A DNA stretch of 64,000 bases from Clavaria fumosa. Its lineage: Eukaryota > Basidiomycota > Agaricomycetes > Agaricales > Clavariaceae. The notes beneath the pieces were generated by a model. That model was not told the origin of the DNA. It did not search any database and saw only the letters and a list, made by a program, of their open reading frames with translations. Positions 542 through 57,637 of the stretch are shown in pieces. Location of the stretch: contig OX637802.1 of NCBI GenBank assembly GCA_951802425.1, positions 3,224,001 to 3,288,000 on the forward strand, in the 5' to 3' direction. Numbering within the stretch: the stretch's first letter is position 1; each line of letters starts with the position of its first letter. Made by a program: the position numbers and the translations under genes.

Positions 542-1631
542 GACTATTCTTCTGCTTCATGAACGAAGCACGGCTATTCTGATTGCCATCGACGACCAAC
601 CTCTTGACACCACGCCATGTCGCTACTTCATTGAGAACCCGATGCGAAACATTTATCTGGGAACCTTTTTGTTAGTCTTTTGGTTGTCTACTTGCGAACG
701 ACGGCGATTCTTGTAGCTCTCACTGTCTTCGGAGCACAATTCTCTCCCATTTCTCACTCAGATCTGCGCCCTGTTTATCGGCATAAACAGGCCCCGCGAC
801 ATGGTCTTGAGAAGCCGTGCTTATCCACCCGTGGAGCTTTGTTTTCTTTTTTTGGCCCTTTCCTCTGTAACGACGATGTATCAAGATATGATTCGCGACC
901 ATCGCTTGACTCCTGTCTGCACAAAATCATTCACCTTCGACTGCGGAGCGCGTTCGCATCGTTACATGAGGCCTGTACCCCATTTGTACCTATTTCGGGG
1001 GAACTGTATTTCCCGACATGGCTTGAGAGGTGTCAATATTACATTGTAAGGTGTCCTAGGGCCATGAGAAGATCTACACTTAGATAATGTTCTGATTATT
1101 TTTATGTACATTATTTGATAGTCAAAACTTGCACTGTCGTGGTAGTGGTGGTTGTCGTCACCATTGACGATGTTGATGATGATGGTGATGAGAATGGTTG
1201 GTGTTTCAATGCTTGAGATGAAAACCATCAAGGTTGGTTGTTGTACAACTTGTAGTATTGTATTTTCAAGTTCCACTGCCACATGGCTGTTTGGCAGCAG
1301 AACGCGGAATGTCGAGTCTGGCGCGTGCGGATTCCTTTCCCTTGTCCTTGCGAGAGCTAGCCTGCGAGACAACCATCATCTCAACCCTCCGCCACTTGGT
1401 GTCTCTCCGCTCTATTCCCTGATTTCTATTGGTTTGTTTGGACTCATCGGTCGAGTCTCTCCTCATCGTCCCCTCGACCCCCTCGGCTTCTTTATCGCCG
1501 AAGCACAATACGGGTCATTCGTGAGCTGACCAGCCAGCAGTCCTGCGTTCGAACTTGTTGCTATCGCGACACCTGCGCCCCCTCGTCCACCCCGATACGG
1601 CTTTGCTCCCTTGCCGCCGTCTCAGGCTGCC
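542..1631. other. Intergenic region: 3' flank of the first gene and promoter of the ankyrin gene
   Basis: No convincing coding exon is seen. Short open frames here overlap each other on both strands and lack family resemblance. Pyrimidine-rich stretches lie at 1370-1500 and 1560-1620, just before the proposed ankyrin start, as is common in fungal promoters. No clear TATA box was found. Confidence 0.4.
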
Positions 1632-14400: not shown

Positions 14401-14867
14401 TGCTGCCATCATGTGCTATGAACATGCTGTGTACGTGGAAGATCTAGAAGAGGCAATGGTCAATGTCGGAGGCGGAGTTGGAGTCATGTTGCTAGAGCAA
14501 GAAGGCAATGGCAGTTGAGTGGATGATGCAAGCTCAGAAGGAGAAGCAATGGGGGAAGGCACCAGGTTGGCAATCCCAGCAACAAGCAGCTGGCCAATGC
14601 CCTCACCCCCTCCTTGATGCTGCCCAGCACTGCAGCATTGAGGTGGTGGGCCAGGCTGGGACTCAGTAAATGGTCAGCCAACACCAGACCCTGGTAGCAG
14701 CATGTGTGAATTGGTTCTCATTACCATTTTCCAGTGTTGTATGTATTCCTCTGATTTAGAACACCTAGAATGATATATGGCCAATTGTAATCACAAGCTA
14801 GCTGCTCTACTTGTCCCATACATTAGCACCTCTGTTCACTGGCTGATTGCATGGTACATTGACTGCT

Positions 14868-15204
14868 CTAATTGTCCCATCCATTAGCATCTCTGATTGA
14901 CTGACTCATTGTATGATACATTAAGTCTTCTAATCATACCATGCATTGACTCCTCTGATTCAATGGCTAATACACAGCCACCTCTAGTTGTATGATATAT
15001 TGACCACTCTAGTCAAATAGCCAATATATTGACTGCTCTAATTGTCCCATACATTGGCATCTCTGATTGACTGACTCATTGTATGATACATTAAGTCTTC
15101 TAATCATACCATGCATTGGCTCTTCTGATTCAATGGCTAATACACCTCTAGTTGTATGATATATTGACCACTCTAGTCAAATAGCCAATATATTGACTGC
15201 TCTG
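14868..15204. repeat. Tandem duplication of a ~160-170-bp unit
   Basis: A block holding TGACTGCTCTAATTGTCCCA, TCTGATTGACTGACTCATTG and GACCACTCTAGTCAAATAGC occurs at about 14868-15026 and again at 15028-15204, nearly identical, with a partial third copy to ~15280. The function is unknown. Confidence 0.7.
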
Positions 15205-15638
15205 ATTGTCCCATACATGAACACCTCTGATTCACTGGCTGATTGCATGATACATTGACTGCTCTAATTGTTCCATACATTGGCACAGTCAGCCAGTCAG
15301 CCAGAATAGGAAATCAAGGGAAATTCAACATGATGAGATTGAGTTATATAATACACCCCCTGGTTTGAGTGATATTAAACCAAGGATATTGGGTTGTACA
15401 AAGCACTCTTGCTACAATCTAGTCTAATGACTGAGCAGGATCAAAGAGCTTAAGCAAACAGGCTCTACTACAGACTCAACAGCAGGTTGATATTACCATC
15501 TGGTCAGATGATTTATGACTTTCACCCAAAAAACAGGTGACAGGCAATTAACTGGAGGATATTGAGTGATACAATATACCCCCTTAATTTGAGTGATTAC
15601 AAACTACAGAATATCAAGTGATACAATACACCTCTCAA

Positions 15639-16196
15639 TGTCAGCCCAGGTCCCTCACAGAAGTGTAAGGGGGGAAGAACTTGATTTCAACATGGGGAAC
15701 TACAACTACTACATGTGGGGTATATATACTAGTGGGCAAGGCAGCACAAGGGATGAGTCACATGGGCAGGAATGAGGCTATGTGCTCTGAGTTGCAAGGG
15801 GTCAGAGAGGTGAAACAGGGCAAGGGGAATACTAAATAGGGAAGGGAGTGGCAAGGCACAGACAGGGGACAATGATAGGGAGAATGCTTGGCACAGTCTT
15901 GGCTGCCTGAGGGGAGACCTTGGTTAGCCCTGATTGTTTGATGGGGGACATCAGTACTGCTATCCTGGATCCACCTCCATCACAAATTCCAACATGTGGG
16001 AAAAGCTGCAGGCACCAGTTGGGGTCATGTGACAGGTAATGCTGTTAACGGCTGATAACACCTTTAACACTCCTGCAAGATTATGGGTGGGCACTAAAGG
16101 TCATGGTCCATCATGTGGCTTCACCATTCACTATTCGCTATTGACCTTCAGAATATGTTCGGGTTCCAGTGGTGGCTTAGGTAAGCAGTCCTGACA
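15639..16196 (-). repeat. 3' LTR of E1 (558 bp)
   Basis: The LTR begins TGTCAGGACTGC (from 16196 downward) directly after the polypurine tract and ends in CTGACA at 15639, so TGTCAG/CTGACA form the terminal inverted repeat. A TATATATA box lies near 15720-15730 on the minus strand. No target duplication can be tested because the partner LTR is missing. Confidence 0.7.
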
Positions 16197-22033: not shown

Positions 22034-22629
22034 ATGTCTGACAAATCAGTAAGTGACTGGCTGATTAGTGTAAAGTTCTGATATACACATTCCTCATTTG
22101 GCACAGGGAACTGAGCCAAGGGAGTCTGGCAAGGTATGTGATTTATGATAAACACATTTCTCATTTGCCACAGGGGGATGAACCTGCTCTTCCAAGAGGG
22201 CCTGGTAAGGTATGTGATTAGCATAAATTTATGATAAACACATTTTTCATTTCACACAGGGAGATGAACCTGCTCTTCCCAGCAGACCAGGCAAGGTATG
22301 TGATTAGTGATAAACAAATTATCATTTTTCATAGGGAGATAAATCAAGGCCAAGCAAGGTATGTGATTAGTGTGAGTTCTGATAAACACATTGCTAATCA
22401 TAATTCTCATTTGCCACAGGGAAAACAACTGGCAAGCACAGGGGAATCAAGCAGGGTATGTGATTATTCTAGATTCATGCTAATTACAATTCTAATTTTG
22501 CACAGAATGGAGTTCCAGAAGCACAAAGTGATTCAGACAATGTGTGTGGTTTGCATAACTCAACCTGAGTCCTCAACTTATTTTTTGCAGACAAACCCTG
22601 ATCCAGAGGAAGAAAGTGTTCTAAGTGGA
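22034..22629 (+). other. Micro-exon array: eight short exons, all phase 0
   Basis: Exons read 22034-22048, 22107-22133, 22174-22209, 22260-22295, 22335-22358, 22420-22455, 22506-22541 and 22591-22629 (15, 27, 36, 36, 24, 36, 36, 39 nt). Introns are 39-61 nt; six of the seven begin GTATGTG, GTGTGTG or GTAAGTG, and all end in CACAG, GCAG or ATAG. Every exon is a whole number of codons. The peptides are related (GTEPRESGK, GDEPALPRGPGK, GDEPALPSRPGK, GDKSRPSK), so the exon plus its intron was duplicated repeatedly. The next exon, 26532-26573 (42 nt), lies beyond E2 and is also phase 0. Confidence 0.7.
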
Positions 22630-22640
22630 GTATGTGATCA

Positions 22641-22931
22641 TATCAGACTGGGTCTCACACAACTTAAGCGTAAGGTCATGACGACAATACTAAGATAAGG
22701 GGAAAAGAGTACAAAAAAGGAAAAGTGAAAGTACTTATAGCGAACGCTTCGGCACTTGCCGACTTTCCCACGCTCGGACCCTTGGATCACGTGATGCGCC
22801 CAGGCCCCAGGTCATGTGATCTTACATGATTACATAATCCGACCCAGCCACAGGTCATGTGACCTTCCAACAACCCTCCCCAGTTTCTCCACAACTGCAC
22901 TTTGGGATGGCTTACATAAGCGATCCTAACA
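22641..22931 (-). repeat. 3' LTR of E2
   Basis: 291 bp, sense start TGTTAGGATCGC at 22931 and end CTGATA at 22641. It is preceded by the polypurine tract AAGAGGGGGGTGA. A TATAAGTAC box sits upstream of the ATCTTAGTATT motif used for priming (see the primer-binding site). Confidence 0.95.
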
Positions 22932-22942
22932 TCACCCCCCTC

Positions 22943-24589
22943 TTAAGGCTGGGCGTCCCGACCAGCTAGCTTGGCCTTGTCGTACACATCGTAGTTCTTC
23001 TCAGCTGCAGTGAGGGCCTTGGAGATATAGTCAACAACTCTCCAGGTTCCATCCGCCTGCTGCTGCGAGAGCACTCCACCAGTTGCCAAGTTGCTTGCAT
23101 CTGTCTCTACCTTCCATCTCCCTTTGTCCTGAGGCAGAGCCAAGACTGGGGCCGATACAAGTGCCTGGCGGAGATCTCGGAAGGCTGCTTCCTCCTCCTC
23201 CTCCCATTTCCACGGAACATTCCCAGTCAGCCGGAAGAGTGGCTTTGCCCGGGCAGAAAGATTCGGGATGTGCTGGCGGAGGTAGTTCAGCATCCCATTG
23301 AACCTCTGGACATCCTTCACATTCTTAGGACGTGGCCAATCTCGGACTGCCGCACCCTTGGCCGGATCATGCTCTAGTCTGTTGTGGGAGATCTTCATCC
23401 CCAGGAAGATGATCTCACTCTTCTCAAACTCGCATTTACTGAGTTTGAGACACAACCCATTCTCTCCAAACTTCCTCAAGACCCGATCCATCCAGTACCG
23501 GTGTGTAGCCAAGTCCTCTGCAAACACAATGACATCATCCACATAGGCCCTCACATGTCCTCCTGCAATCTCCTCCCTCAACACATGATTCATGAAGCGT
23601 TGGAAGGTGGCAGGGGCATTCTGCAGTCCAAACCACATGACAGCTGGTTCGAAGAGTCCACGGGGTGTCAGGAAGGCGCAGCGGTGCTGGTGCTCGGGCC
23701 AGACCTGCATAGATGGGAAACCTCCTTTTGCATCAATCTTAGAGTAGATCGACGCTCCTTTAAGCACATCCACTGTGTCTCGGATGCGGGGAAGGGGGTA
23801 CTTGTCCTTGATCAGGTGTGCATTCAGCCTCGAGTAGTCGATGATTGGCCGCAGTTTGTCCTTCTCATGTTTGAAGAAGAAGGGGCTGGCATACGGGGAT
23901 TTCGAGGGCCGGATTCGTCCAGAAGCAAGCTGCTCATCCACCCAACGGTTCATCTCCACCATCTCCTGCCATGTCAAAGAATACAGCTTGGAGGAGAGGT
24001 GCTCAGGGTCCTTTTTGAATTCGATCTTAATATCGAAGTCTGGTCGGGAGCGGGGAAGTTCATCCCACTTCGCTTCACTAAACACCAAAGGGTAGCGGCT
24101 GGGCCAATCGGGGGTAGGGCCAGAGTTGGGAAAACGGGTGTCCAGAATACTCGTGGATGCGAGGGTACTCGTTTTCAGGGGTGCAGGGGCTCGAGGGGAT
24201 GGGGAACACTGTGGGGGGCAGCGGGTAAGGCTCAGCTCTGCCTTCTGCCAGTCAATATCCGGGTTGTGCCGCTTGAGCCAGTCATGCCCAAGGATGACCT
24301 TGTGGGACTGGGTCTTTCCCAGCAGAAAGTGGATCCGCTCCTGGTGGTCACCAACTCTCACCAGCACCTCTATCCCATACCGGACCTTTCCATTCCTGTT
24401 CTGTGTCCCATCCACATTATACATGGTGATTGGGTTCAGCAGGAGAGATGGCTCCAGTCCCACTCCTTTTGCCCACTCCAAATCCATGAAGCAGTTGGTG
24501 CACCCTGAGTCGACAAGGGCCTTCATTGTAGTCCCTTTGCCAGTGCTGAAAGCCTCCAAGTGCACCTGGATGGCTAGCTCTCGTGGCAC
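22943..24589 (-). pseudogene. E2 pol: protease-RT-partial RNase H fused to the pol C-terminus
   Basis: The frame runs from MPRELAIQVHLEAF through an aspartic protease with intact DSG (ALVDSGCTNCF) and an RT with the YVDD motif (AYVDDVIVFAEDL) into RNase H (NYDVYDK). It then jumps directly to AKLAGRDAQP, the last residues of pol in E3 and E5. The joint lies in GACAAGG, present at both ends of the missing piece, so the deletion probably arose through 7-bp microhomology; it keeps the frame. In E3 and E5 protease follows gag in one continuous frame, whereas here an 11-bp duplication shifts the junction. Confidence 0.9.
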
Positions 24590-25629
24590 ATGTGTGGCAC
24601 ATGTTTCCGCACTTCTGGCCGCACTCTGGTTAGGCGCTCTGCCAGTCTCACTTCCTCCTTCACCTCAGCCCCAATTCGGGTATGTCTCCGCTGCAAGATA
24701 GTATATCGGGGTATACTTGCAGCAGGCACAGGGACGGAAAGGGGGCTGGCACACTTCTTCTCCCCAGTGGGAGTCCTCCTCTCTCTCTCACACAGCTCTA
24801 TGCAGGCTCGGAGCCATGCAATCTCTTTCTCATATCCCTCCACCATTTGGGGGGCACATGGTGCTGCCCGGGTTTGGGCCCTTGGGGCCTGCGGACGCGT
24901 ATCAGGCAGGGGGCAGAAACGGACAGCATGGCCAGTCTGGTGGCATCGGAAACAACATCTCTCATCAGCAGGGGCCCATCCTCGGGCCATGGCCACATCT
25001 GGAGTACACAGCAGAGGGGTCACAAGAGGTCGCGAAACGGTCACGGCAGGTCGCGGTAGGGTCGCGGTGGGTCGCAGTGTCCGTTCCGTGAGTATCCCAT
25101 CCAGTCGCCTTTGCTGGGCATCAAGCCTCTCAGCCAGCACCTTCCATTCTCCATATGTCTCTGGCATTGGGGAGACACCATAGATTCTCTCCACCAACCT
25201 CCTACTCAGGTTCAACTCCAGCCAATGGACTAGGATTCCTGAGTCCTTCTCTGCACTCAACTTCGCCCGTTGGAACAGCATCTCGAATTTCGCGAAGAAC
25301 TCTGGTGCTGTCATGGCACCCTGTTTCAGCCCTGCAATATCGGCAAGGGCAGTCGCACAGTCATTCGGGTCATCGAATGCGCGCTTCATCTCCTCCACAA
25401 ACTCTGCCCAGGTTCCGGCCTCGCCACTACCCAGGATCTCTTCTGCCTTCATATTCGCCCATTCTGCAGCGAATCCATCTCCAACAATTTTGCTCAGAGC
25501 AAAGAGGACCTTCACCAGGTCCACAGCATAGGTAGTCGGGTTCGCCATAAACAGGAGGCGAAGGGATCGGAGGAACGTATGGAAGTTCCTTTTCTGCCCA
25601 TCAAAGGGGGCAATGGCTAGGTCCAGCAT
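24574..25629 (-). CDS. E2 Gag (capsid and CCHC zinc knuckle)
   Basis: The likely start is the ATG at 25629 (MLDLAIAPFDGQ); the frame is open upstream only through a leader GTG. The capsid-like part holds GFAAEWANMKAEEILG and ILVHWLELNLSRRL. A single CCHC knuckle (CFRCHQTGHAVRFC) lies near the middle and a coiled, charged segment follows. The frame ends at 24574, because an 11-bp tandem repeat (ACATGTGCCAC) shifts it away from pol. Gag packages the element RNA in virus-like particles. Confidence 0.85.
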   Translation of the reverse strand: MLDLAIAPFDGQKRNFHTFLRSLRLLFMANPTTYAVDLVKVLFALSKIVGDGFAAEWANMKAEEILGSGEAGTWAEFVEEMKRAFDDPNDCATALADIAGLKQGAMTAPEFFAKFEMLFQRAKLSAEKDSGILVHWLELNLSRRLVERIYGVSPMPETYGEWKVLAERLDAQQRRLDGILTERTLRPTATLPRPAVTVSRPLVTPLLCTPDVAMARGWAPADERCCFRCHQTGHAVRFCPLPDTRPQAPRAQTRAAPCAPQMVEGYEKEIAWLRACIELCERERRTPTGEKKCASPLSVPVPAASIPRYTILQRRHTRIGAEVKEEVRLAERLTRVRPEVRKHVPHMCHES

Positions 25630-26184
25630 TCTATAGCACTGTAAAATAAAATTCCGGGCCTTCGGCACTCAGGATTTCTTCGATCTCTTAACAGTCCTGT
25701 CCTCTCAGGCTGCTCTTCTAGGTACTTATGTACCTATAGAACTCTTATTCTATGAATCTTTTGTTAACGTGGGGCACGAATGGTATCCCAGGTGGTCACT
25801 CCACAACTCCTAATGAGTTGCCCATGTGCCCTTCTGACAATGGTCACAGAGCAAGGGCTCTGTCCACTGGACCAGGAAACTACAGAAGACTATGTAGGGG
25901 CTTTCCTTGCCCTGTACACTAAGCGATTCACTGGTACATAGCTGTAAAATAGAGATCCGGGCCTTTGGCACTCGGTATCACTTGGGGAGGGTCACAGTTG
26001 ACTTCCTCTGGGTCTGGTCACGTGTATGTACACACAGTAAAAATTTCACGCAGTTCTGTTACACACTGCGGGCAGGGTAAAGAAGAAGAGGATGATAGGG
26101 GCTGAGCTGTGACAACGTGTCACAGTTTGAGATTAAGGGTCCAGGCTAGCCAGGTTAGGACACGGGGCTAGGGCGGACGGGCGG
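25630..26184 (-). other. Long untranslated leader of E2
   Basis: About 550 bp separate the primer-binding site and gag. Two direct copies of a ~30-bp sequence (GAGTGCC.AAGGCCCGGA...TATTTTACAG) lie ~310 bp apart. Between them is a structured stretch with TGGTCCAGTGG, resembling a tRNA A box, and the hairpin ACAGAGCCCTTGCTCTGT. The same leader occurs in E5 (35325-35889) and in E3 (49094-49190 plus 57166-57637). Confidence 0.6.
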
Positions 26185-44644: not shown

Positions 44645-47600
44645 TTAAGGCTGGGTGTCCCGACCAGCTAGCTTGGCCTTGTCAGGGTGAGCAAGGAAGA
44701 AGTCCCGGAGAAGCAGTGCCACATTGGTGAGGTTCTGTCGTGGCTCCCAAGTGTTCTCCTCTACAGGGTATCCCAACCACTTCACCAGGTATCTCACTCC
44801 ATGCCCCACCTTCTTAACATCAAGGATCGCCTCCACATCATACTCCAGGTGGTCATCATCAATCATAGGGGGCAGAGGGGGAGGCAGGTGCTGAGAAGGG
44901 AAAGAAGGGGGGTGGTATGGTGTCAACAGCAACTCATTGAAGACCCGATGGATGCGCCAGGCCTGAGGGAGCTTGAGGCGATACCCAGCAGGTCCCACCT
45001 TCTCCTCAACTGCAAAGGGGCCTGCTCTCTTGTTGTCAAGCTTTTTACAGGGCCAGTCCATCTTCAAGTTTCTAGTATCCAGCCAGACCAGATCTCCCTC
45101 AGAGTACTCCTGACTTGGGCGTTTCCCCTTATCGTAGCTCTTCTTCATCGCTGCCACTGCTTTCTCCATTGCCTCCTTGGCTGCTCTTCGGGACTCCATG
45201 AGCTTAGCCATCCACTCGTCCACCACTGGGTTCACCTCAGAAGGTGGCCGGAGCCCCCCATTCCCTGGGTGTCACCCATAATCGAGGAAGAAAGGTGTCT
45301 GTCCTGTCGCTGAGTGCTCATGATTATTAAGAGCAAACTCCACAGTGGACAACCATTCAGCCCAGTCATCCTGGAGATGGTCCATGTAAGCCCGGAGATA
45401 GATCTCCATCTCCTGGTTTGCCCGTTCCGTCTGTCCATCAGTCTGCGGATGAAAGGCAGTACTTGGATTTGCCTTTACCCGGATCATGGAGTAGAACTCC
45501 TTCATGAAGTGGGACATGAACTGGGACCCCCGGTCACTCACAACCTTGTGAGGGACTCCATGGTCATGAAACACTCGATCCCGGAGGAGACACGCCGCTC
45601 CAAGTCCTGTGAGGTTGAGCCCGATCACTTCGAGCAGTGTCCGTTTCGTGAATTTGTCAACAATAACAAGGATGGCATTATGTCCACGGGAGAGGGGGAG
45701 GGGACTGACTATGTCCCATGAGATCACCGACGAGGGACCATTGGGCACCAGATGGGGGTGCAGTGGGGCAGCATGCTTGGTACGGTCAGGCTTCGTCCGC
45801 TGGCATGTCTCACACCCCTGGGCATACCAATCCGCATCTTTTACCATGTCCGGCCACCAATAACCCTTCACTAGTGCTGCTCTCAACTTCCGGGGCCCAG
45901 GGTGTCCAGCAGTGGGGAGGTCATGCTCAAACTCGAGAACGGCCTCACGAGCTCCTAGGGGGACCCAAGTGACTATCCCCTTTCGCCAGAGTCCAGCACA
46001 ATCTCGTGTCCACTCATCATCAAGCTCCTCTGGCTTCTGTATGTGTACTGCACTATTTTTCTGGAGTAGTGTCTCCATTTCTGATGTGAATGACACACGG
46101 ACTTCTGTTTCCAGGAAAACCTGCACCAGTGTATCCTCCTCCACCATCTCTCCATAGTCCGGTCTCCGGGAGAGTGCATCTGCCTTTGTATTCGACTTGC
46201 CAGTGCGATACTTTATCTCAAAGTCAAAGCACTGGAGCTCTCCAACCCAACGAACCTGCCTCGGCTTGAACTTCTGGGGCTTCCGGAAGTACTGGAGGTT
46301 TGCATGGTCCGTCCAGATCTCGATCGTCTCCTCTGCTCCAATGAGGTATGCTCGCCACTCGTGAAGTGCCCAAATCACAGCCAAGAACTCCTTGTCATAC
46401 ACATTGTAGTTCTTCTCAGCTGCAGTGAGGGCCTTGGAGATATAGTCCATGACTCTCCAGGTTCCATCCATCTGCTGCTGTGAGAGCACTCCACCAGTTG
46501 CCAGGTTGCTTGCATCTGTCTCTACCTTCCATCTCCCTTTGTCCTGAGGCAGAGCCAAGACCGGGGCTGATACAAGTGCCTGGCGGAGATCTCGGAAGGC
46601 CGCTTCCTCCTCCTCCTCCCATTTCCATGGAACATTCCCAGTCAGCCAGAAGAGTGGCTTTGCCTGGGCAGAAAGATTTGGGATGTGCCGGTGGAGGTAG
46701 TTCAACATCCCATTGAACCTCTGGACATCCTTCACATTCTTGGGACGTGGCCAATCTCGGACTGCCGCACCCTTGGCCGGATCATGCTCTAGTCTGTTGT
46801 GGGAGATCTTCATCCCCAGGAAGATGATCTCACTCTTCTCAAACTCACATTTACTGAGTTTGAGACACATCCTATTCTCTCCAAACTTCCTCAAGACCCG
46901 ATCCATCCAGTACCGGTGTGTAGCCAAGTCCTCTGCAAACACAATGACATCATCCACATAGGCCCTCACATGTCCTCCTGCAATCTCCTCCCTCAACACA
47001 TGATTCATGAAGCGTTGGAAGGTGGCAGGGGCATTCTGCAGTCCAAACCACATGACAGCTGGTTCAAAGAGTCCACGGGGTGTCAGGAAGGCACAGCGGT
47101 GCTGGTGCTCGGGCCAGACCTGCATAGATGGGAAACCTCCCTTTGCATCAATCTTAGAGTAGATTGATGCTCCTTTAAGCACATCCACTGTGTCTCGGAT
47201 GCAGGGGAGGGGGTACTTGTCCTTGATCAGGTGTGCATTCAGCCTCGAGTAGTCGATGATTGGCTGCAGTTTGTCCTTCTCATGTTTGAAGAAGAAGGGG
47301 CTGGCATACAGGGATTTCAAGGGCCGGATTCGTCCAGAAGCAAGCTGCTCATCCACCCAACGGTTCATCTCCACCATCTCCTGCCGTGTCAAAGAATACA
47401 GCTTGGAGGAGAGGTGCTCAGGGTCCTTTTTGAACTCGATCTTAATATCGAAGTCTGGTCGGGAGCAGGGAAGTTCATCCCACTTTGCTTCACTAAACAC
47501 CAAAGGGTAGCGGCTGGGCCAATCAGGGGTAGGGCCAGAGTTGGGAAAACGGGTGTCCAGAATACTCGTGGATGTGAGGGTACTCGTTTTCAGGGGTGCA

Positions 47601-49093
47601 GGGGCTCGAGGGGATGGGGAACACTGTGGGGGGCAGCGGGTAAGGCTCAGCTCTGCCTTCTGCCAGTCGATATCTGGGTTATGCCGCTTGAGCCAGTCAT
47701 GCCCAAGGATGACCTTGTGGGACTGGGTCTTTCCCAGCAGAAAGTGGATCCGCTCCTGGTGATCACCAACTCTCACCAGGACCTCTATCCCATACTGGAC
47801 CTTTCCATTCCTGTTCTGTGTCCCATCCACATTATACATGGTGATTGGGTTCAGCAGGAGAGATGGCTCCAGTCCCACTCCTTTCGCCCACTCCAAATCC
47901 ATGAAGCAGTTGGTGCACCCTGACTTGACAAGGGCCTTCATTGTGGTCCCTTTGCCAGTGCTGAAAGCCTCCAAGTGCACCTGGATGGCTAGCTCTCATG
48001 GCACATGTTTCCGCACTTCTGGCCACACTCTGGTTAGGCACTCTGCCAGTCTCACTTCCTCCTTCACCTCAGCCCCAATTCGGGTATGTCTCCGCTGCAA
48101 GATAGTATATCAGGGTATACTTGCAGCAGGCACAGGGACGGAAAGGGGGCTGGCACACTTCTTCTCCCCAGTGGGAGTCCTCCTCTCTCTCTCACACAGC
48201 TCTATGCAGGCTCGGAGCCATGCAATCTCTTTCTCATATCCCTCCGCCATTTGGGGGGCACATGGTGCTGCCCGGGTTTGGGCCCTTGGGACCTGCAGAC
48301 ACGTATCAGGCAGGGGGCAGAAACGGACAGCATGGCCAGTCTGGTGGCATCGGAAACAACATCTCTCATCAGCAGGGGCCCATCCTCGGGCCATGGCCAC
48401 ATCTGGAGTACACAGCAGAGGGGTCACAAGAGGTCGCGAAATGGTCACGGCAGGTCACGGTAGGGTCGCGGTGGGTCGCGCGGGGGTCACAGTGGGTCGC
48501 GGTGTCCGTTCCGTGAGTACCCCACCCAGTTGCCTTTGCTGGGCATCAAGCCTCTCAGCCAGCACCTTCCATTCTCCATATGTCTCTGGCATCGGGGAGA
48601 CACCATAGATTCTCTCCACCAACCTCCTACTCAGGTTCAACTCCAGCCAATGGACTAGGATTCCTGAGTCCTTCTCTGCACTCAACTTCACCTGTCGGAA
48701 CAGCGTCTTGAATTTCGCGAAGAACTCTGGTGCTGTCATGGCACCCTGTTTCAGCCCTGCAATATTGGCAAGGGCAGTCGCACAGTCATTTGGGTCATTG
48801 AATGTGCACTTCATCTCCTCCACAAACTCTGCCCAGGTTCCAGCCTCGCCACTACCCAGGATCTCTTCCACCTTCATATTCACCCACTCTGCAGCGAATC
48901 CTTCTCCAGTAATTTTGCTCAGAGCAAAAAGGACCTTCACCAGGTCCACAGCATAGACAGTCGGGTTCGCCATAAACAGGAGGCAAAGGGATCGGAAGAA
49001 CGTACAGAAGTTCCTTTTCTGCCCATCAAAGGGGGCAACAGATAGGTCAAGCCTCATAGGTTGGGCTACAGGCGGGGCGACATGGTCTGCCAT
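44645..49093 (-). pseudogene. E3 Gag-Pol polyprotein in one frame with four TGA codons
   Basis: Start ATG at 49093 (MADHVAPPVAQ). Order: capsid-like gag, CCHC knuckle (CFRCHQTGHAVRFC), protease, RT (AYVDDVIVFAEDL), RNase H (DASNLATGGVLSQQ, YNVYDKEFLAVI), integrase (HDLPTAGHPGP...CQRTK; SWDIV, VVSDRGSQF, TDGQTERANQEME) and chromodomain (EYDVEAILDVKKVGHGVRYL). TGA codons lie at 48455-48457, 48110-48112, 47996-47998 and 45272-45274. The first three are CGA in E2, so each is one CpG transition; the fourth also occurs in E1 and E5. The protease active site reads VKSGCTNCF instead of VDSG, which removes the catalytic Asp. The single frame matches the Tf1/sushi type of chromovirus. Confidence 0.92.
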
Positions 49094-49789
49094 CACAGGC
49101 CCTGGATGCTGTAAATAAAGTTCCAGGCCTTGGGCACTCAGGATTTCTTCGATCTCTTAACAGTCCTGTCCTCTTAGGCTGCTCTTCTGTCACCCCCTTC
49201 AGCACACCCACCCCCTATCCAAAAGGCCCAGCCAATCGTCGGCCGAGATATAGCTTTATAGGCTTGGCCGATCAACTTGATATACCAAAATCCTGCCAGG
49301 CATACAGGGATCCCATGGTAATGATGATACCCTTTCAAAAGGGTTGGCTGACACCCATCTTAGGAACCAGTGTGGAGGGTCTGAAGCACCCTATTCAAAC
49401 ATTTCTCTCACTTACATGACAAATTAGATCAAAAAAGCTGGGGATCAAGCATATGCACAAGATTAGGAAGCAAAGATCAGATGTGCTATTTGATAGACAT
49501 GTAAATTACAAGGTCATCTGCATCATTTGAGACTCCTTATCATCTGAGACTCCTCTATGACAACTTAACATAGTTGGGTGAGATGAAAACCAATATGCCT
49601 TCTAATAGGTCTTCAAAGGGTAGAAGCAAATGTACCAATCAAATATGCAATGGAGCCATTATAAACTAGAGTGAAATGTGGTTGTCAACTGAGTCAGGAT
49701 ATTCTTTGGAAAAGGATGGGCCTTAATATCCTTTCTGAAGAGTATTCAAATCCACTTTGAATATGTGTTCTAAAGGAGAATGTATTGTT

Positions 49790-50177
49790 ATTGTTCAAAT
49801 ATTCTTGCAATGTAGAAGTTGTGCATGTGAGTCTGTTATCACACCTTGTGATTATATCATTCTGTGGCTGTGCCTGGGATCCCGGGTGTGACAGTCACAC
49901 TGTGACCAACTCTGCATATTAGTATTGTTCAGATATCCTTGCATTGTAGAAGTTGTGCATGTGAGTCTGTTATCTCACCTTGGGATTATATCATTTTGTG
50001 GCTGTGCCCAGGATCCCAGGTGTGACAGTCACACTGTGACCAACTCTGCATATTAGTATTGCTCAGATATTCTTGCATTGTAGAAGTTGTGCATGTGAGT
50101 CTGTCATCTCACCTTGGGATTATATCATTTTGTGGCTGTGCCCAGGATCCCAGGTGTGACAGTCACACTGTGACCAC
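49790..50177. repeat. Three tandem ~130-bp units in the left arm of the foldback
   Basis: Each unit holds CAGATAT(C/T)CTTGCA, GTGCATGTGAGTCTGTTATC and GTGACAGTCACACTGTGACC (the last a self-complementary stretch). The mirror copies are at about 56133-56540 in the right arm. Confidence 0.85.
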
Positions 50178-50611
50178 AACTCTGGATCTGCAACTCATAT
50201 CCATAACTACCAGGGCAGGGCAAGTACAATGATTGGACAGAGGGGAACAAGGTGTGAAGACATGTTCAGAGAAGGAAGGACTACTGTATCTGTAACTACA
50301 AGGGCACAACAAGAACATATCCAAGGCTGGGGAAGGCATCTCAGAGAGGGTGATGAGTGTTGAGAAGGGGTGGTGTCAGCACTGACAGAGCCATCACACT
50401 CAAACATTCTTTCATTTACTTGTGTCTATAGTAGTCTCTTTGTGTTTACCTGCCCTCCTCTCCTTGTATTTACCTACCAGTTTCTACATCATATACACCC
50501 TGGGGCTCTTGAGCATGAGCCAGGGATCACTTTATGACTTATTGCACATGGACAGCAGAACATAGGATGATTTGACACTTGAGATTATTTGAAAGGATGC
50601 TGCTGGCCCAC

Positions 50612-50629
50612 TTAGGGTTAGGGTTAGGG
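50612..50629 (+). repeat. Interstitial telomere-type repeat, (TTAGGG)3
   Basis: Three exact TTAGGG units in the left arm. The complement lies at 55693-55710. TTAGGG is the telomere repeat of most filamentous fungi. Confidence 0.95.
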
Positions 50630-51361
50630 CAGATAAACTGCAATAGATTCAGGGTGATCTCTTATACCATATTCATTTGTCAAAGCTAATCCACAAGTAC
50701 AAATTAATTACAACAAATCAAAAGAAAAACATGTCTGGCATTTACATCAGAGGATGGGTGGCCAAATCCACCTCTGACAAGCCATTCATATGATAATATG
50801 TGCTTCATTGCAAAGGGGGCACTGCAATCTAGGCAAGCCCCACTTCACCAAAGCAAGAGTCCCCAGTCTCAAGTAGATAAGATGATCTGTAAGAAACTAG
50901 GGTGGGAGGACGCTAACCACATGGCAGTCAGCAGTCCATCCCAGAGCCCATATGGCAACCCCAAGGTATGAGCAGCAGATAGCACAAAAAAACTTACAAA
51001 GATGGGGTTGGGGGAGGTTGTCTTGCATAATAGACCACACTCACATCCTTGGCCCATTTGGCCACCCCAGGTGCAGGTATGAATGAGGGTTGGTTGGGGC
51101 CAGCCTGCATATAAGCTGCCACCAAACCAAAAGGCCCATACAGCCACCCTCTTCACATAACATTCTGAAAAGCAACATCAACGAGCACCATACCAGTAAA
51201 AAGTGTGAATAGTAATAAAACCCACATACCTCTGCAGGTGTCAAGCTCATACAGACACCTGAAGGCAGACAAGAGCAGCATTCCCTGTATGGCACTGCAG
51301 TTGCCACACAGAGAATGCTGCCCTTGTCTGCCACAAACCATAAGGTGGACATGGCAGCACA

Positions 51362-52640
51362 GGAAGGGCAGTGGGAAGGTGGGGCAGCAGGGCAGCAGGC
51401 GGGGCAGCAGGTGGGCAGGGCGGGCAGGCGAGGCTGCAGGAGGGCAGGGCGGGCAGGCGAGGCTGCAGGAGGGCAGGGCGGGGCAGCAGGCAGGCAGGGC
51501 GGGGCAGCGGGCAGGCAGGGCAGCGGGCAGGCAGGCAAGGCAACTGGCGGCAGGGCGGGGCAGCGGGTGGGAAGGCGGGGCAGCCAGTGGGCAGGCAGGG
51601 CTGCGGGTGGGCAGGCAGGGCTGCGGGCAGGGTGGGGTTGCGGGCGAGCAGGCGGGGCTGCAGGAGGGCAGGGCGGGGCAGGGCGGGGCGGCGGTGGGCA
51701 GGGCTGTGGGGCTGCGAGGCAGCGGGCAGGCAGGGCGGGGCAGGGGGCAGCAGGCAGGCAGGGCTGCGGGTGGGCAGGCAGGGTTGCGGGCAGGGTGGGG
51801 TTGCGGGCGAGCAGGCGGGGCAGCGGCCAGGCAGGGCGGGGCAGCGGGCGGGCAGGCGGGGCTGCAGGAGGGCAGGGCAGCGGGCAGCGGGCGGGGCTGC
51901 CGGTGGGAAGGCGGGGCTGCCGGTGGGCAGGCGGGGCTGCGGGCAGGCAGGCGAGGCAGCGAGTGGGCAGGGCTGCGGGGCTGCGGGCGAGCAGGCGGGG
52001 CAGCGGGCGGGCAGGCGGGGCTGCAGGAGGGCAGGGCGGGGCAGGGCGGGGCGGCGGGTGGGCAGGGCTGCGGGGCTGCGATGCAGCGGGTGGGCAGGCG
52101 GGGCAGCCGGTGGGCAGGCGGGGCTGCAGGAGGGCAGGGCGGGGCAGGGCGGGGCGGCGGGTGGGCAGGGCTGCGGGGCTGCGATGCAGCGGGTGGGCAG
52201 CCGGGGCAGCCGGTGGGCAGGCAGAGCTGCGGGCAGGCAGGCGAGGCAGCGAGTGGGCAGGGCTGCGGGGCTGCGGGCGAGCAGGCGGGGCAGCGGGCGG
52301 GCAGGCGGGGCTGCAGGAGGGCAGGGCGGGGCAGGGCGGGGCGGCGGGTGGGCAGGGCTGCGGGGCTGCGATGCAGCGGGTGGGCAGGCGGGGCAGCCGG
52401 TGGGCAGGCGGGGCTGCGGGCAGGCAGGCGGGGCAGCGGGTGGGCAGGGTGGGGCAGGCGAGGCAGCGGGTGGGCAGGCGAGGCAGCGGGTGGGCAGCGG
52501 CCGGGCAGGCGGGGCTGCAGGAGGGCAGGGCGGGGCAGGGCGGGGCTGCGAGGCAGCGGGTGGGCAGGCGGGGCAGCGGAGCAGGGGCAGCTTGGCAGGA
52601 GGGGAGGGCGGGATGCCGGGAAAGCGGGGTGGTGGGGCAA
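51362..52640. repeat. G-rich minisatellite in the left arm
   Basis: About 1.3 kb of imperfect units such as GGGCAGGCGGGGCTGC and GGGCAGGGCGGGGCAGC. The strand has dense GGG/GGGG runs able to form G-quadruplexes. All frames stay open for 460-550 codons because the unit lacks stop codons; these are not genes. Confidence 0.95.
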
Positions 52641-53617
52641 CGGGGCTGCGAGGCAGCGGATGGGCAGGCGCAGCAGAGGACGTTCCACCATGTTTGTTTG
52701 GTGCTCACTGTTTAAAGTGTTTCAACATTTGGCTCTGTTTGTTCATGTTGATATGTCATGTGACTCTGCCCAATGACACAATCACAAGCCTTTTCTTGGC
52801 CCTGTACTCAGGCCAGGCTAGAATGGGAGGATTTTATGTACTAGGTTCTATATGATGTGATAAGCTAGAGTCTAGATGTGGGTGCCAAGAGAGGATGATA
52901 CAAACAAAGGCCCAGAGCTGCTTTTGGTAAGCTGCTATGACTGTGGGAAGAAAATTGCATGGCTTGCGAAATATGACTTTTTATACACCAAAAAATCGGC
53001 AAAAATCAGGAGATTCTGAATCTGGATACCCCACATTTGTACCTGCCTTGGTTCAGTGTCAATTCGCAAAATACACAGAAAATATTCATTTTCCACAATT
53101 CTGCAGTACTCTGCAGTACTCTGGCTTGAAAATGGTTAGTGGAGGATACACACATTACCTGTGGACATATGGGGAGGGAGTAGATTAGTTTAACAACCCA
53201 CCCACCATCTCTGTCACCTCCCTGGAATCCATTATTAGGAATTAGGGTTATTGGCCTGGGAGCATGGCTATTTGTTATATTGCAAATTCCAGCCATCAGA
53301 CTACACCCTATGACATCTAATACAATCATACAAAAGCCCATAATATTTGGTGCAGAACTACAGATTCCCCATGTCTATTTTCCCAAAATTCTCAAAATCT
53401 CTCCCCAGATAGCCCCCTTTGTCAAATCACATATTCCTGTTAGCAAATAGTTCACAATGTGTACATGAAGACATGTTCAAAGTTTGGTGAAGTTGGGCCA
53501 AGTTCTCAGGAAGATAGCTCAGAATGAGACTTTTGGGAGACTGTCAAGGTCTTCCTTATCCTTGCCTTCATCTTTGACTTCACTTTAGACTGTCCTCCAG
53601 AAGACATATTCTGGGCT
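52641..53617. other. Unpaired central region of the foldback
   Basis: Nearly 1 kb of moderate GC sequence not repeated in the arms. Short frames (52937-53188 +, 53341-53006 -) have no recognised domain. Nothing resembling a transposase is seen. Confidence 0.6.
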
Positions 53618-54960
53618 ATCCCGCCCTGCCTGGCCGCTGCCCCGCCTGCTTGCCCGCAACCCCGCCCTGCCCGCAGCCCTGCCTGCCCACCCGCAGCCCC
53701 GCCTGCCCACCCGCTGCCCCGCCCTGTTTGCCCGGTGCCTCGCAGCCCCGCCCTGCCCACCCACTGCCTTGCCTGTCTGCCCGCTGCCCCGCCCTGCCTG
53801 CCCGCTGCCCCACCCTGCCTGCCTGCTGCCACGCCCTGCCTGCCCACTGCCCTGCCCCGCCTGCCCGCTGCCCCGCCTGCCTGCCCGCAGCCCCGCCTGC
53901 CTGCCCACCGGCAGCCCCGCCTTCCCACCTGCTGCCCCGCCTGCCCACCCGCCGCCCCGCCCTGCCCCGCCCTGCCCTCCTGCAGCCCCGCCTGCCCTCC
54001 TGCAGCCCCGCCTGCCCTCCTGCAGCCCCGCCTGCCCTCCTGCAGCCCCACCTGCCCTCCTGCAGTCCCGCCTGCCCTCCTGCAGCCCCGCCTGCCCGCC
54101 CGCTGCCCCGCCTGCTCGCCCGCTGCCCCGCCCTGCCCTCCTGCAGCCCCGCCTGGCTGCCCGCTGCCCCGCCTCTACACCCGTTGCCCCGCCTGCCCGC
54201 TGCCCCGCCTGCCTGCTGCCTGCTGCCCCGCCCTGCCTGGCCGCTGCCCCGCCTGCTTGCCCGCAACCCCGCCCTGCCCGCAGCCCTGCCTGCCCACCCG
54301 CAGCCCCGCCTGCCCACCCGCTGCCCCGCCTTCCTACCCGCTGCCCCGCCCTGTTTGCCCGGTGCCTCGCAGCCCCGCCCTGCCCACCCACTGCCTTGCC
54401 TGTCTGCCCGCTGCCCCGCCCTGCCTGCCCGCTGCCCCGCCCTGCCTGCCTGCTGCCACGCCCTGCCTGCCCACTGCCCTGCCGCCAGTTGCCTTGCCTG
54501 CCTGCCCGCTGCCCTGCCTGCCCGCTGCCCTGCCCCGCCTGCCCGCTGCCCAGCCCTGCCTGCCCGCCCGCTGCCCCGCCCTGCCTGGCCGCTGCCCCGC
54601 CTGCTCGCCCGCAACCCCGCCCTGCCCGCAGCCCTGCCTGCCCACCCGCAGCCCTGCCTGCCTGCTGCCCGCTGCCCTGCCCTGCCTGCCCGCTGCCTCG
54701 CAGCCCCGCAGCCCTGCCCACCCGCCGCCCCGCCCTGCCCCGCCCTGCCCACCGGCTGCCCCGCCTTCCCACCCGCTGCCCCACCCTGCCGCCAGTTGCC
54801 TTGCCTGCCTGCCTGCTGCCCTGCCTGCCCGCTGCCCCGCCCTGCCTGCCTGCTGCCCTGCCCTGCCCTCCTGCAGCCTCGCCTGCCCACCCGCTGCCCC
54901 GCCCTGCCCACCTGCTGCCCCGCCTGCTGCCCTGCTGCCCCACCTTCCCACTGCCCTTCC
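53618..54960. repeat. C-rich minisatellite in the right arm
   Basis: The complement-strand counterpart of 51362-52640, with units such as GCCCCGCCCTGCCTGCCCGC. The order and number of units differ from the left arm, so the arrays have diverged by unit gain and loss although the outer arms are nearly identical. Confidence 0.95.
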
Positions 54961-55692
54961 TGTGCTGCCATGTCCACCTTATGGTTTGTGGCAGACAAGG
55001 GCAGCATTCTCTGTGTGGCAACTGCAGTGCCATACAGGGAATGCTGCTCTTGTCTGCCTTCAGGTGTCTGTATGAGCTTGACACCTGCAGAGGTATGTGG
55101 GTTTTATTACTATTCACACTTTTTACTGGTATGGTGCTCGTTGATGTTGCTTTTCAGAATGTTATGTGAAGAGGGTGGCTGTATGGGCCTTTTGGTTTGG
55201 TGGCAGCTTATATGCAGGCTGGCCCCAACCAACCCTCATTCATACCTGCACCTGGGGTGGCCAAATGGGCCAAGGATGTGAGTGTGGTCTATTATGCAAG
55301 ACAACCTCCCCCAACCCCATCTTTGTAAGTTTTTTTGTGCTATCTGCTGCTCATACCTTGGGGTTGCCATATGGGCTCTGGGATGGACTGCTGACTGCCA
55401 TGTGGTTAGCATCCTCCCACCCTAGTTTCTTACAGATCATCTTATCTACTTGAGACTGGGGACTCTTGCTTTGGTGAAGTGGGGCTTGCCTAGATTGCAG
55501 TGCCCCCTTTGCAATGAAGCACATATTATCATATGAATGGCTTGTCAGAGGTGGATTTGGCCACCCATCCTCTGATGTAAATGCCAGACATGTTTTTCTT
55601 TTGATTTGTTGTAATTAATTTGTACTTGTGGATTAGCTTTGACAAATGAATATGGTATAAGAGATCACCCTGAATCTATTGCAGTTTATCTG

Positions 55693-55710
55693 CCCTAACC
55701 CTAACCCTAA
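55693..55710 (-). repeat. Interstitial telomere-type repeat, right arm
   Basis: CCCTAA three times, the mirror of 50612-50629. Confidence 0.95.
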
Positions 55711-57637
55711 GTGGGCCAGCAGCATCCTTTCAAATAATCTCAAGTGTCAAATCATCCTATGTTCTGCTGTCCATGTGCAATAAGTCATAAAGTGATCCCT
55801 GGCTCATGCTCAAGAGCCCCAGGGTGTATATGATGTAGAAACTGGTAGGTAAATACAAGGAGAGGAGGGCAGGTAAACACAAAGAGACTACTATAGACAC
55901 AAGTAAATGAAAGAATGTTTGAGTGTGATGGCTCTGTCAGTGCTGACACCACCCCTTCTCAACACTCATCACCCTCTCTGAGATGCCTTCCCCAGCCTTG
56001 GATATGTTCTTGTTGTGCCCTTGTAGTTACAGATACAGTAGTCCTTCCTTCTCTGAACATGTCTTCACACCTTGTTCCCCTCTGTCCAATCATTGTACTT
56101 GCCCTGCCCTGGTAGTTATGGATATGAGTTGCAGATCCAGAGTTGTGGTCACAGTGTGACTGTCACACCTGGGATCCTGGGCACAGCCACAAAATGATAT
56201 AATCCCAAGGTGAGATGACAGACTCACATGCACAACTTCTACAATGCAAGAATATCTGAGCAATACTAATATGCAGAGTTGGTCACAGTGTGACTGTCAC
56301 ACCTGGGATCCTGGGCACAGCCACAAAATGATATAATCCCAAGGTGAGATAACAGACTCACATGCACAACTTCTACAATGCAAGGATATCTGAACAATAC
56401 TAATATGCAGAGTTGGTCACAGTGTGACTGTCACACCCGGGATCCCAGGCACAGCCACAGAATGATATAATCACAAGGTGTGATAACAGACTCACATGCA
56501 CAACTTCTACATTGCAAGAATATTTGAACAATAACAATACATTCTCCTTTAGAACACATATTCAAAGTGGATTTGAATACTCTTCAGAAAGGATATTAAG
56601 GCCCATCCTTTTCCAAAGAATATCCTGACTCAGTTGACAACCACATTTCACTCTAGTTTATAATGGCTCCATTGCATATTTGATTGGTACATTTGCTTCT
56701 ACCCTTTGAAGACCTATTAGAAGGCATATTGGTTTTCATCTCACCCAACTATGTTAAGTTGTCATAGAGGAGTCTCAGATGATAAGGAGTCTCAAATGAT
56801 GCAGATGACCTTGTAATTTACATGTCTATCAAATAGCACATCTGATCTTTGCTTCCTAATCTTGTGCATATGCTTTATCCCCAGCTTTTTTGATCTAATT
56901 TGTCATGTAAGTGAGAGAAATGTTTGAATAGGGTGCTTCAGACCCTCCACACTGGTTCCTAAGATGGGTGTCAGCCAACCCTTTTGAAAGGGTATCATCA
57001 TTACCATGGGATCCCTGTATGCCTGGCAGGATTTTGGTATATCAAGTTGATCGGCCAAGCCTATAAAGCTATATCTCGGCCGACGATTGGCTGGGCCCAT
57101 AAAAAGGGCATCAGTCAAAATCGGCTGGGCCTTTTGGATAGGGGGTGGGTGTGCTGAAGGGGGTGCTTCTGTGTACTTATGTACCTATAGAACTCTTATT
57201 CTATGAAACTTTTGTTAACGTGGGGCCCAAATGGTGTCCCAGGTGGTTGCTCCACAACTCCTAATGAGTTGCCCATGCGCCCTTCTGACAATGGTCACAG
57301 AGCAAGGGCCCTGTCCACTGGACCAGGAAACTACAGAAAGACTATGTAGGGGCCTTTCCTTGCCCTGTACAATACACGATTCACTGGTACGTAGCTGTAA
57401 AACAAAGTTCCGGGCCTTGGGCACTCGGTATCACTTGGGGAGGGTCACAGTTGACTTCCTCCTGGTCTGGTCACGTGTATCTACACACAGTAAAAATTTC
57501 GCGTGGTTCTGTTACACACCGCGGGCAGGGTAAAGGAGAAGAGGATGATAGGGGCTGAGCTGTGACAACGTGTCACAGTTTGAAATTAAGGGTCCAGGCT
57601 AGCCGGGTTAGGACATGGGGCTAGGGTGGACAGGCAG

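What the first reader, a model, noticed from the sequence alone, without database searches (positions are those of the whole stretch)
49191..57165. An 8-kb foldback transposon with very long arms, minisatellites and no visible transposase
Seen directly: exact terminal inverted sequence, a 7-bp target duplication, an interrupted gypsy leader restored on removal, and arms made of ~2.17 kb unique sequence plus ~1.3 kb GC-rich minisatellite around a ~1-kb centre. Foldback and Galileo elements of insects have comparable layouts and Galileo makes 7-bp duplications, but I know of no fungal example of this type. The near-identity of the outer arms suggests a recent insertion or arm homogenisation.
Basis: partly seen in the sequence, partly recalled or inferred. 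Interest (0 to 1): 0.9.

Follow-up and report, generated by a model that had tools for sequence, protein, structure and literature searches.

The report
Palindromic jumping gene in a fungus
This is one worn copy of a family of 7-10 kb mobile DNA elements whose two halves mirror each other almost perfectly; they carry the end sequences of a 26-kb fungal jumping gene that has its own moving enzyme, and one copy keeps a scar suggesting that one half is used as the template to rewrite the other.

Summary
In detail: 7,975 bp, matching ends, 7-bp duplication CTTCTGT, insertion into a retroelement whose leader is uninterrupted in 7 of 7 other copies fetched. It is neither alone nor Galileo-like by kinship. 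At least eight foldbacks with mirrored arms of about 2.2-2.6 kb lie in this genome; in the five others fetched whole (7.1-9.6 kb) every module including the hinge is mirrored. The window copy has lost half of its hinge and 34 bp of its left arm. The same termini bound larger elements (11 of 32 terminus pairs, eight of them 24-27 kb) with matches to KDZ transposase and TET/JBP dioxygenase; in the one read in full the transposase also has a CxC2 cluster. CA..TG ends and 7-bp duplications fit published Kyakuja elements. The foldback is most likely a non-autonomous KDZ derivative moved in trans. In 8 of 8 copies the two arms are each other's closest relatives. One copy of eight has 43 bp of its left flank copied, inverted, between its right end and right duplication: the scar expected if one arm templated the other and overshot. 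My searches found no KDZ foldback in print. New variant of a known kind; trans-mobilisation and the copying mechanism are inferred.

The parts
49184..49190 (+). left target site duplication CTTCTGT
49191..49233 (+). left terminal inverted repeat (CACCCCCTTCAGCACACCC...); 39 bp of it used as the genome-wide pattern
49191..49926 (+). left terminal module; 97-98% identical to both ends of the 26-kb KDZ element, with a 34-bp deletion just after 49224
49789..50176 (+). 2.9 copies of a 134-bp tandem repeat in the left arm, similar to the inner edge of the terminal module
50187..51361 (+). left middle module; 76-84% identical to stretches of 14.4-15.9 kb of the 26-kb element
51377..52690 (+). left GC-rich minisatellite; the 26-kb element has a short GC-rich repeat at the homologous place
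52691..52913 (+). inner arm segment; first 68 bp 82% identical to 16,068-16,132 of the 26-kb element
52914..53618 (+). remaining half (with loop) of the palindromic hinge; the mirrored half is missing in this copy
53619..54945 (-). right GC-rich minisatellite
54961..56135 (-). right middle module (mirror of 50187-51361)
56146..56533 (-). 134-bp tandem repeats in the right arm
56396..57165 (-). right terminal module (full length)
57123..57165 (-). right terminal inverted repeat
57166..57172 (+). right target site duplication CTTCTGT
48691..49190 (+). left flank in a multicopy retroelement, uninterrupted in 7 of 7 other fetched copies; reverse transcriptase/integrase frame at 45272-47980 on the minus strand

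Best explanation
A non-autonomous, palindromic (foldback) derivative of a KDZ-superfamily DNA transposon. Shown: its terminal 0.74 kb is that of about 26-kb elements in the same genome which encode a KDZ transposase and a TET/JBP dioxygenase; both kinds sit between 7-bp duplications; its arm is that element's end plus an internal segment in the same order, running into a palindromic hinge. Inferred: KDZ transposase made by the larger elements acts on the shared ends and moves the foldback. Origin (inferred): a palindromic repeat (30 other loci in the genome) lay in a deleted KDZ element; breakage or fork arrest there and fold-back synthesis mirrored everything on one side, end included, giving a mobile palindrome. 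Maintenance: the arms of a copy are made alike (shown by comparison of copies); the likely way is that one arm serves as template to rebuild the other, which in one copy overshot the element end and copied 43 bp of flank (scar shown, mechanism inferred). The window copy is an ageing member that lost half of its hinge.
For: Shared ends: 99 pattern matches, control 0; 32 facing pairs under 50 kb, 11 with both a KDZ match of 95% or more and a TET match, eight of these 24.4-26.8 kb, three 31-44 kb. In the one 26-kb element read in full: KDZ PF18758 1e-30, CxC2 PF18803 2.6e-27, Tet_JBP PF12851 1.8e-18. Identity to it: terminal module 98.0%, middle module 76-84%. 7-bp duplication directly at the ends in 10 of 12 elements checked. 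Empty sites 7 of 7. In 5 of 5 other foldbacks fetched whole, arms and hinge are mirrored. Arms of 8 copies: within-copy 0-10 substitutions, between copies 11-45 in 112 comparisons; private changes shared by both arms 73, in one arm 14; 8 of 8 pairs are cherries. A 459-bp minisatellite is identical in both arms of L021, against 1,044-1,729 bp in five other copies. Scar: 43 bp mirrored, then the duplication GTAGTCT.
Against: No movement was seen; mobilisation in trans rests on shared ends and duplication length. The middle module is only 76-84% identical to the one 26-kb element read in full, so the direct parent is older or unseen, and the 98% ends must come from later exchange. The hinge repeat was not found in that element, so the hinge-first origin is a reconstruction. 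The scar is one copy of eight; the other seven have none (C10b matches by 1 bp). Differences between arms do persist: C1a 10 substitutions and a 134-bp unit, C4 a 134-bp unit, the window's 34-bp deletion, and minisatellites that differ between arms in 5 of 6 copies. One genome, no reads.
Confidence: 0.8

Rival explanations
1. A foldback of the P/Galileo kind, moved by a P-type transposase.
Against: Elements with the same ends encode KDZ and TET/JBP; 7 bp and CA..TG also fit Kyakuja (PMC12730594). I made no separate genome search for a P-type transposase.
Confidence: 0.03
2. Arms are alike only because each copy came from a different, already perfectly palindromic parent, not because of copying between arms after insertion.
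For: L019 and L021 have arms without a single difference over about 2.2 kb; a fresh copy of a perfect palindrome would look so.
Against: Copies differ by 11-45 substitutions while their arms share 73 private changes, so arms were equalised in each lineage at some stage; in C1:3227889-3237919 the mirrored flank lies between the element and its duplication, so that event followed insertion.
Confidence: 0.25
3. Assembly or library artefact: fold-back reads assembled as palindromes.
For: Fold-back artefacts in long reads are known (listing with abstract start of PMC12870357).
Against: Separate places, 7-bp duplications directly at the ends in 7 of 8 full copies, private changes per copy and small differences between arms, empty paralogous sites.
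Confidence: 0.04
4. The foldback is the older form and the 26-kb elements took their long inverted ends from it.
For: The 26-kb element also has about 3.6-kb inverted ends, and ends are exchanged between families: y-type copies (L026-L028) have 84% ends but a 96% middle module, L024 changes type at about alignment column 600.
Against: The foldback also holds the 26-kb element's internal segment in the same order, most simply a deletion from the larger element.
Confidence: 0.12

Closest known systems
Kyakuja (KDZ superfamily, TET+), Kyakuja-1/2_LB of Laccaria bicolor (Kojima 2025, PMC12730594; parts 1-4 of 7 read, and passages)
   Same: KDZ transposase, AG-type TET/JBP, 7-bp target duplications, 5'-CA..TG-3' ends.
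   Different: These two families are described as having no terminal inverted repeats; the 26-kb element here has about 3.6-kb ones and the foldback is mirrored throughout. 'Foldback' occurs 0 times in the main text.
KDZ1-KDZ3 of Cryptococcus neoformans (PMC12810828; passages read)
   Same: KDZ transposons with terminal inverted repeats, shown to move.
   Different: 9-11 kb, inverted repeats 139-241 bp, 8-bp (KDZ1) or 4-8 bp duplications, CxC1 named; no foldback form in the passages seen.
Galileo / Foldback (P superfamily) of Drosophila (PMC3573991; passages read)
   Same: Very long arms with internal tandem repeats, chimeric copies; repair of one TIR on another TIR was proposed there.
   Different: Different transposase superfamily; here copies are mirrored to the hinge and one carries a mirrored-flank scar.
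Tetris / DAIBAM of Drosophila virilis (PMC4079207; passages read)
   Same: Non-autonomous foldback that shares its ends with another element and has internal tandem repeats.
   Different: 8-10 bp duplications, no autonomous partner found there; here a candidate partner is in the same genome.
Y-chromosome palindromes (recalled; PMC3403216 seen only in a listing with abstract start)
   Same: Gene conversion between mirrored arms.
   Different: Not mobile elements.

Membership tests
KDZ superfamily (26-kb partner) | KDZ transposase core | tested here: met
   PF18758 1e-30, profile positions 98-217 of 217, in one frame.
KDZ superfamily (26-kb partner) | CxC cysteine cluster | tested here: met
   PF18803 CxC2 2.6e-27
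Kyakuja lineage (26-kb partner) | 7-bp target duplication | tested here: met
   AGCCTCA at C8:731235-757123, the one such element tested
Kyakuja lineage (26-kb partner) | CA..TG ends | tested here: met
   CACCCCC..GGGGGTG
Kyakuja lineage (26-kb partner) | AG-type TET/JBP (HxD; Gly331 and Asp337 of CcTET) | tested here: met
   alignment to 7vpn_A, E 4e-22: HRD, then G and D at the places I count as 331 and 337 (residue roles from PMC12730594)
Kyakuja lineage (26-kb partner) | no terminal inverted repeats (described for two Laccaria families, not given as a definition) | tested here: not met
   about 3.6-kb inverted ends
Kyakuja lineage (26-kb partner) | place in the Kyakuja clade of a transposase tree | not tested
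   no labelled reference sequences at hand; hence 'Kyakuja-like'
Foldback (structural class) | very long inverted arms with internal tandem repeats and a small or absent coding middle | tested here: met
   12 of 13 frames of 100 aa or more lie across the GC-rich minisatellites
Galileo / P superfamily | P-type transposase between the same termini | tested here: not met
   of 10 frames of the 26-kb element scanned with Pfam, 3 had matches, to CxC, KDZ and Tet_JBP; no other element with these ends was scanned and no genome search for a P transposase was made

The most novel reading that the evidence does not exclude
A self-renewing palindromic transposon: KDZ foldbacks in this fungus arise by mirroring around a mobile palindromic hinge and are kept alive by templated arm-to-arm rewriting on the chromosome, with end modules swapped in from the current autonomous element, so that a non-autonomous element repairs its own ends and stays recognisable to a changing transposase.
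Probability: 0.35. Interest if true: 0.75.

Novelty: new variant of a known kind. Interest (0 to 1): 0.62.

Why it matters
How foldback elements arise and why their arms stay alike is an old question, and for some, such as Tetris, no autonomous partner was found (PMC4079207). Here a candidate partner, copies with exchanged ends, near-perfect 7-10 kb palindromes and a scar of arm rewriting sit in one genome, so the steps can be tested. It also brings the foldback form into the KDZ/TET group of fungal transposons, for which my searches listed no such report, and offers natural long palindromes for studying palindrome stability in a fungus.

Tried and rejected
RNA genes: Rfam scan of 49000-57500 at gathering thresholds gave 0 matches, ARAGORN 0. 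Coding capacity of the minisatellite: of 13 frames of at least 100 aa, 12 run across the GC-rich arrays in several frames and both strands; I take this as a composition effect, untested. Galileo kinship: see rivals. C12:2036368-2039585 as a full foldback: rejected, 3.2 kb, right end short, no duplication. Iyer et al. 2014 is not held; I know it only through citing papers. Literature searches for a KDZ or fungal foldback. No listed title or abstract start describes one; where more papers matched than were listed (70, 806, 24) only the top 20, 20 and 15 were seen. Passages of two Marasmius oreades papers: one reports TIR motifs of its KDZ elements in a supplement I could not read (PMC8290104), the other has 0 occurrences of KDZ, Kyakuja or foldback (PMC9674265). 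Subscription papers are mostly missing.
Full report
Observation. The window holds, at 49191-57165, an element of 7,975 bp with inverted ends beginning CACCCCCTTCAGCACACCC and a 7-bp duplication CTTCTGT on either side. The arms match over 2,216 nt. Forty matches of the left flank were scored in the genome and eight loci came back, one of them the window; in the 7 others the two flanks are contiguous and overlap by a single CTTCTGT. A 902-aa frame at 45272-47980, minus strand, has reverse transcriptase, RNase H and integrase matches, so the target is a retroelement.

It is one of a family. The left arm gives 109 matches (pieces) in the same genome, a lower bound. A 39-bp terminus pattern with up to 3 mismatches has 99 matches, 48 forward and 51 reverse, and none for the backward control. 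Pairing neighbouring facing termini under 50 kb gives 32 pairs; 11 contain both a KDZ match of at least 95% identity and a TET/JBP match of at least 90%, with lengths 24,404 to 44,199 bp, eight of them 24.4-26.8 kb.

The 26-kb partner. C8:731235-757123 was fetched in three adjacent stretches. It is 25,889 bp, flanked by AGCCTCA twice, and has inverted ends of about 3.6 kb (1-1116 against 24774-25889, 99.6%; 1115-3575 against 22225-24707, 98.8%). Of ten reading frames scanned, three had Pfam matches: CxC2 (2.6e-27; also CxC1 2.4e-07), KDZ (1e-30) and Tet_JBP (1.8e-18). The TET/JBP frame aligns to the solved Coprinopsis CcTET (7vpn, 4e-22) and keeps HRD and the residues that I count as aligned with Gly331 and Asp337, which Kojima 2025 describes as kept in the AG type encoded by Kyakuja (PMC12730594). 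The same paper gives Kyakuja 7-bp duplications and CA..TG ends, but no inverted repeats in the two Laccaria families. I therefore call the partner Kyakuja-like; a labelled transposase tree was not made.

How the foldback is built. Foldback positions 1-736 match both ends of the 26-kb element at about 98%. Stretches of 1010-2153 match its internal 14,411-15,899 at 76-84%, and 3501-3568 match 16,068-16,132 at 82%. Between these the 26-kb element has a short GC-rich repeat where the foldback has the 1.3-kb minisatellite. The arm is thus an end plus an internal piece in the same order, then a hinge.

The canonical form is a palindrome. In five further foldbacks fetched whole (L018, L019, L020, L021, L023; 7,062 to 9,645 bp) terminal module, middle module, inner segment and hinge are all mirrored. 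Three of the five align to their own reverse complement in one piece from end to end (L018 91.6%, L019 98.9%, L021 99.3%); L020 and L023 do so in several pieces, and their minisatellites or 134-bp arrays differ in length between arms. The centre search shows the mirrored hinge in the 8 other foldback loci it hit and not in the window copy. Two of them, L034 and L035, are palindromes on their own. The window copy has lost one half of the hinge and 34 bp near the left end.

Target duplications. Of 12 elements checked, 10 have 7 bp duplicated directly at their ends: seven foldbacks, the 26-kb element, a 650-bp element, and the outer ends of a nested one (C6). Two do not: the short C12 copy, and C1:3227889-3237919.

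The scar. In that C1 copy the 43 bp next to the right end are the exact inverted copy of the last 43 bp of the left flank, followed at once by GTAGTCT, the 7 bp that precede the left end. The seven other full copies have no such tract (six with 0 bp; C10b with 1 bp). I read it as resynthesis of the right arm on the left arm that ran 43 bp past the end and was joined back at the right duplication. It is one case of eight.

Concerted arms. For eight copies both arms were aligned from terminus to minisatellite; y-type copies L026-L028, the short or rearranged L022, L024 and L025, and the C2 copy that was not fetched were left out. Within a copy the arms differ by 0-10 substitutions; the 112 comparisons between copies give 11-45, and in each of the 8 copies the sister arm is nearer than any arm of another copy. 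Of private substitutions 73 are shared by both arms of a copy and 14 are in one arm. A FastTree tree shows 8 of 8 pairs as cherries, with support of 0.95 or more for the six that have a value; the other two pairs have no difference. The minisatellite of L021 is 459 bp and identical in both arms; in five other copies measured it is 1,044-1,729 bp and the arms differ. Against full homogenisation stand those five, the C1a arms (10 substitutions, seven of them at positions 987-1351 inside the tandem array, and one 134-bp unit), a 134-bp unit in C4 and the uncorrected window deletion.

End exchange. y-type copies have ends only 84% identical to the 26-kb element but a middle module 96% identical to the window's; L024 changes from y-type to canonical at about alignment column 600. 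In the C6 y-type copy the inner terminus is preceded by about 0.8-0.9 kb of mirrored sequence that ends in a related terminus (about 80% identical over 115 bp) with its own 7-bp duplication GCCGTCA. Mirroring that includes foreign flank and yields a new mobile unit is what hinge-centred duplication predicts; insertion of one palindrome within another is possible too.

Mechanism, step by step. Shown: shared ends, duplication length, partner genes, concerted arms, one mirrored-flank scar. Inferred: transposition in trans; the origin by fold-back synthesis at a palindrome, a route described in yeast for breaks near inverted repeats (PMC10622511, abstract read); a role in fork stalling of the G-rich minisatellite, which has 158 overlapping G4-like starts in 1.33 kb against 0 in the 2.17-kb unique arm.

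Place among known things. Foldbacks are an old structural class with several transposase origins (Galileo in the P superfamily, others placed with Mutator; passages of PMC4079207 and PMC3573991). Repair of one long TIR on another was proposed for Galileo. A KDZ foldback, a fungal foldback mirrored to the hinge, or a mirrored-flank scar did not appear in the papers my searches listed, of which I saw mostly titles and abstract starts; the library lacks most subscription journals, and one paper's KDZ end motifs are in a supplement I could not read. I rate it a new variant of a known kind.

Limits. One unnamed assembly, no reads, no relatives, no expression data. Counts from whole-genome searches are lower bounds. 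Only one 26-kb element was read in full; L009-L017 give about 10 kb from one end each of nine further places.

Noticed in passing
G000, KDZ matches: Among the 20 matches of at least 95% identity over the full query, in-frame stops are TGA only (13 with one or two TGA, 7 with none); in the neighbouring CxC2 frame one copy also has a TAA. This may reflect C-to-T decay of methylated CG sites in an element that carries a TET/JBP gene; base changes were not examined.
   Followed up: no
window 50612-50629 and 55693-55710: Each arm carries three TTAGGG units, recalled as the common fungal telomere repeat.
   Followed up: no
L034:1-1953 (C9:2756200-2758200): A stand-alone hinge palindrome has an insert-like block of about 220 bp starting AGTGTTGCCA, with a 32-bp direct repeat beside it, at the same place in both arms, as if an insertion had been copied from one arm to the other.
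   Followed up: partly
L032:1118-1907 and its mirror in L033 (C6:2488600-2499600): A foldback nested within the arms of a related foldback with diverged ends CACACCCTTCAGCG and duplication GCCGTCA.
   Followed up: partly
G000 C2:123702-145690 and C10:2500990-2545188: Terminus pairs 22 and 44 kb apart that probably hold nested insertions.
   Followed up: no
window 51041-55281: Long open frames in several frames and both strands across the GC-rich minisatellites, likely a composition effect.
   Followed up: partly
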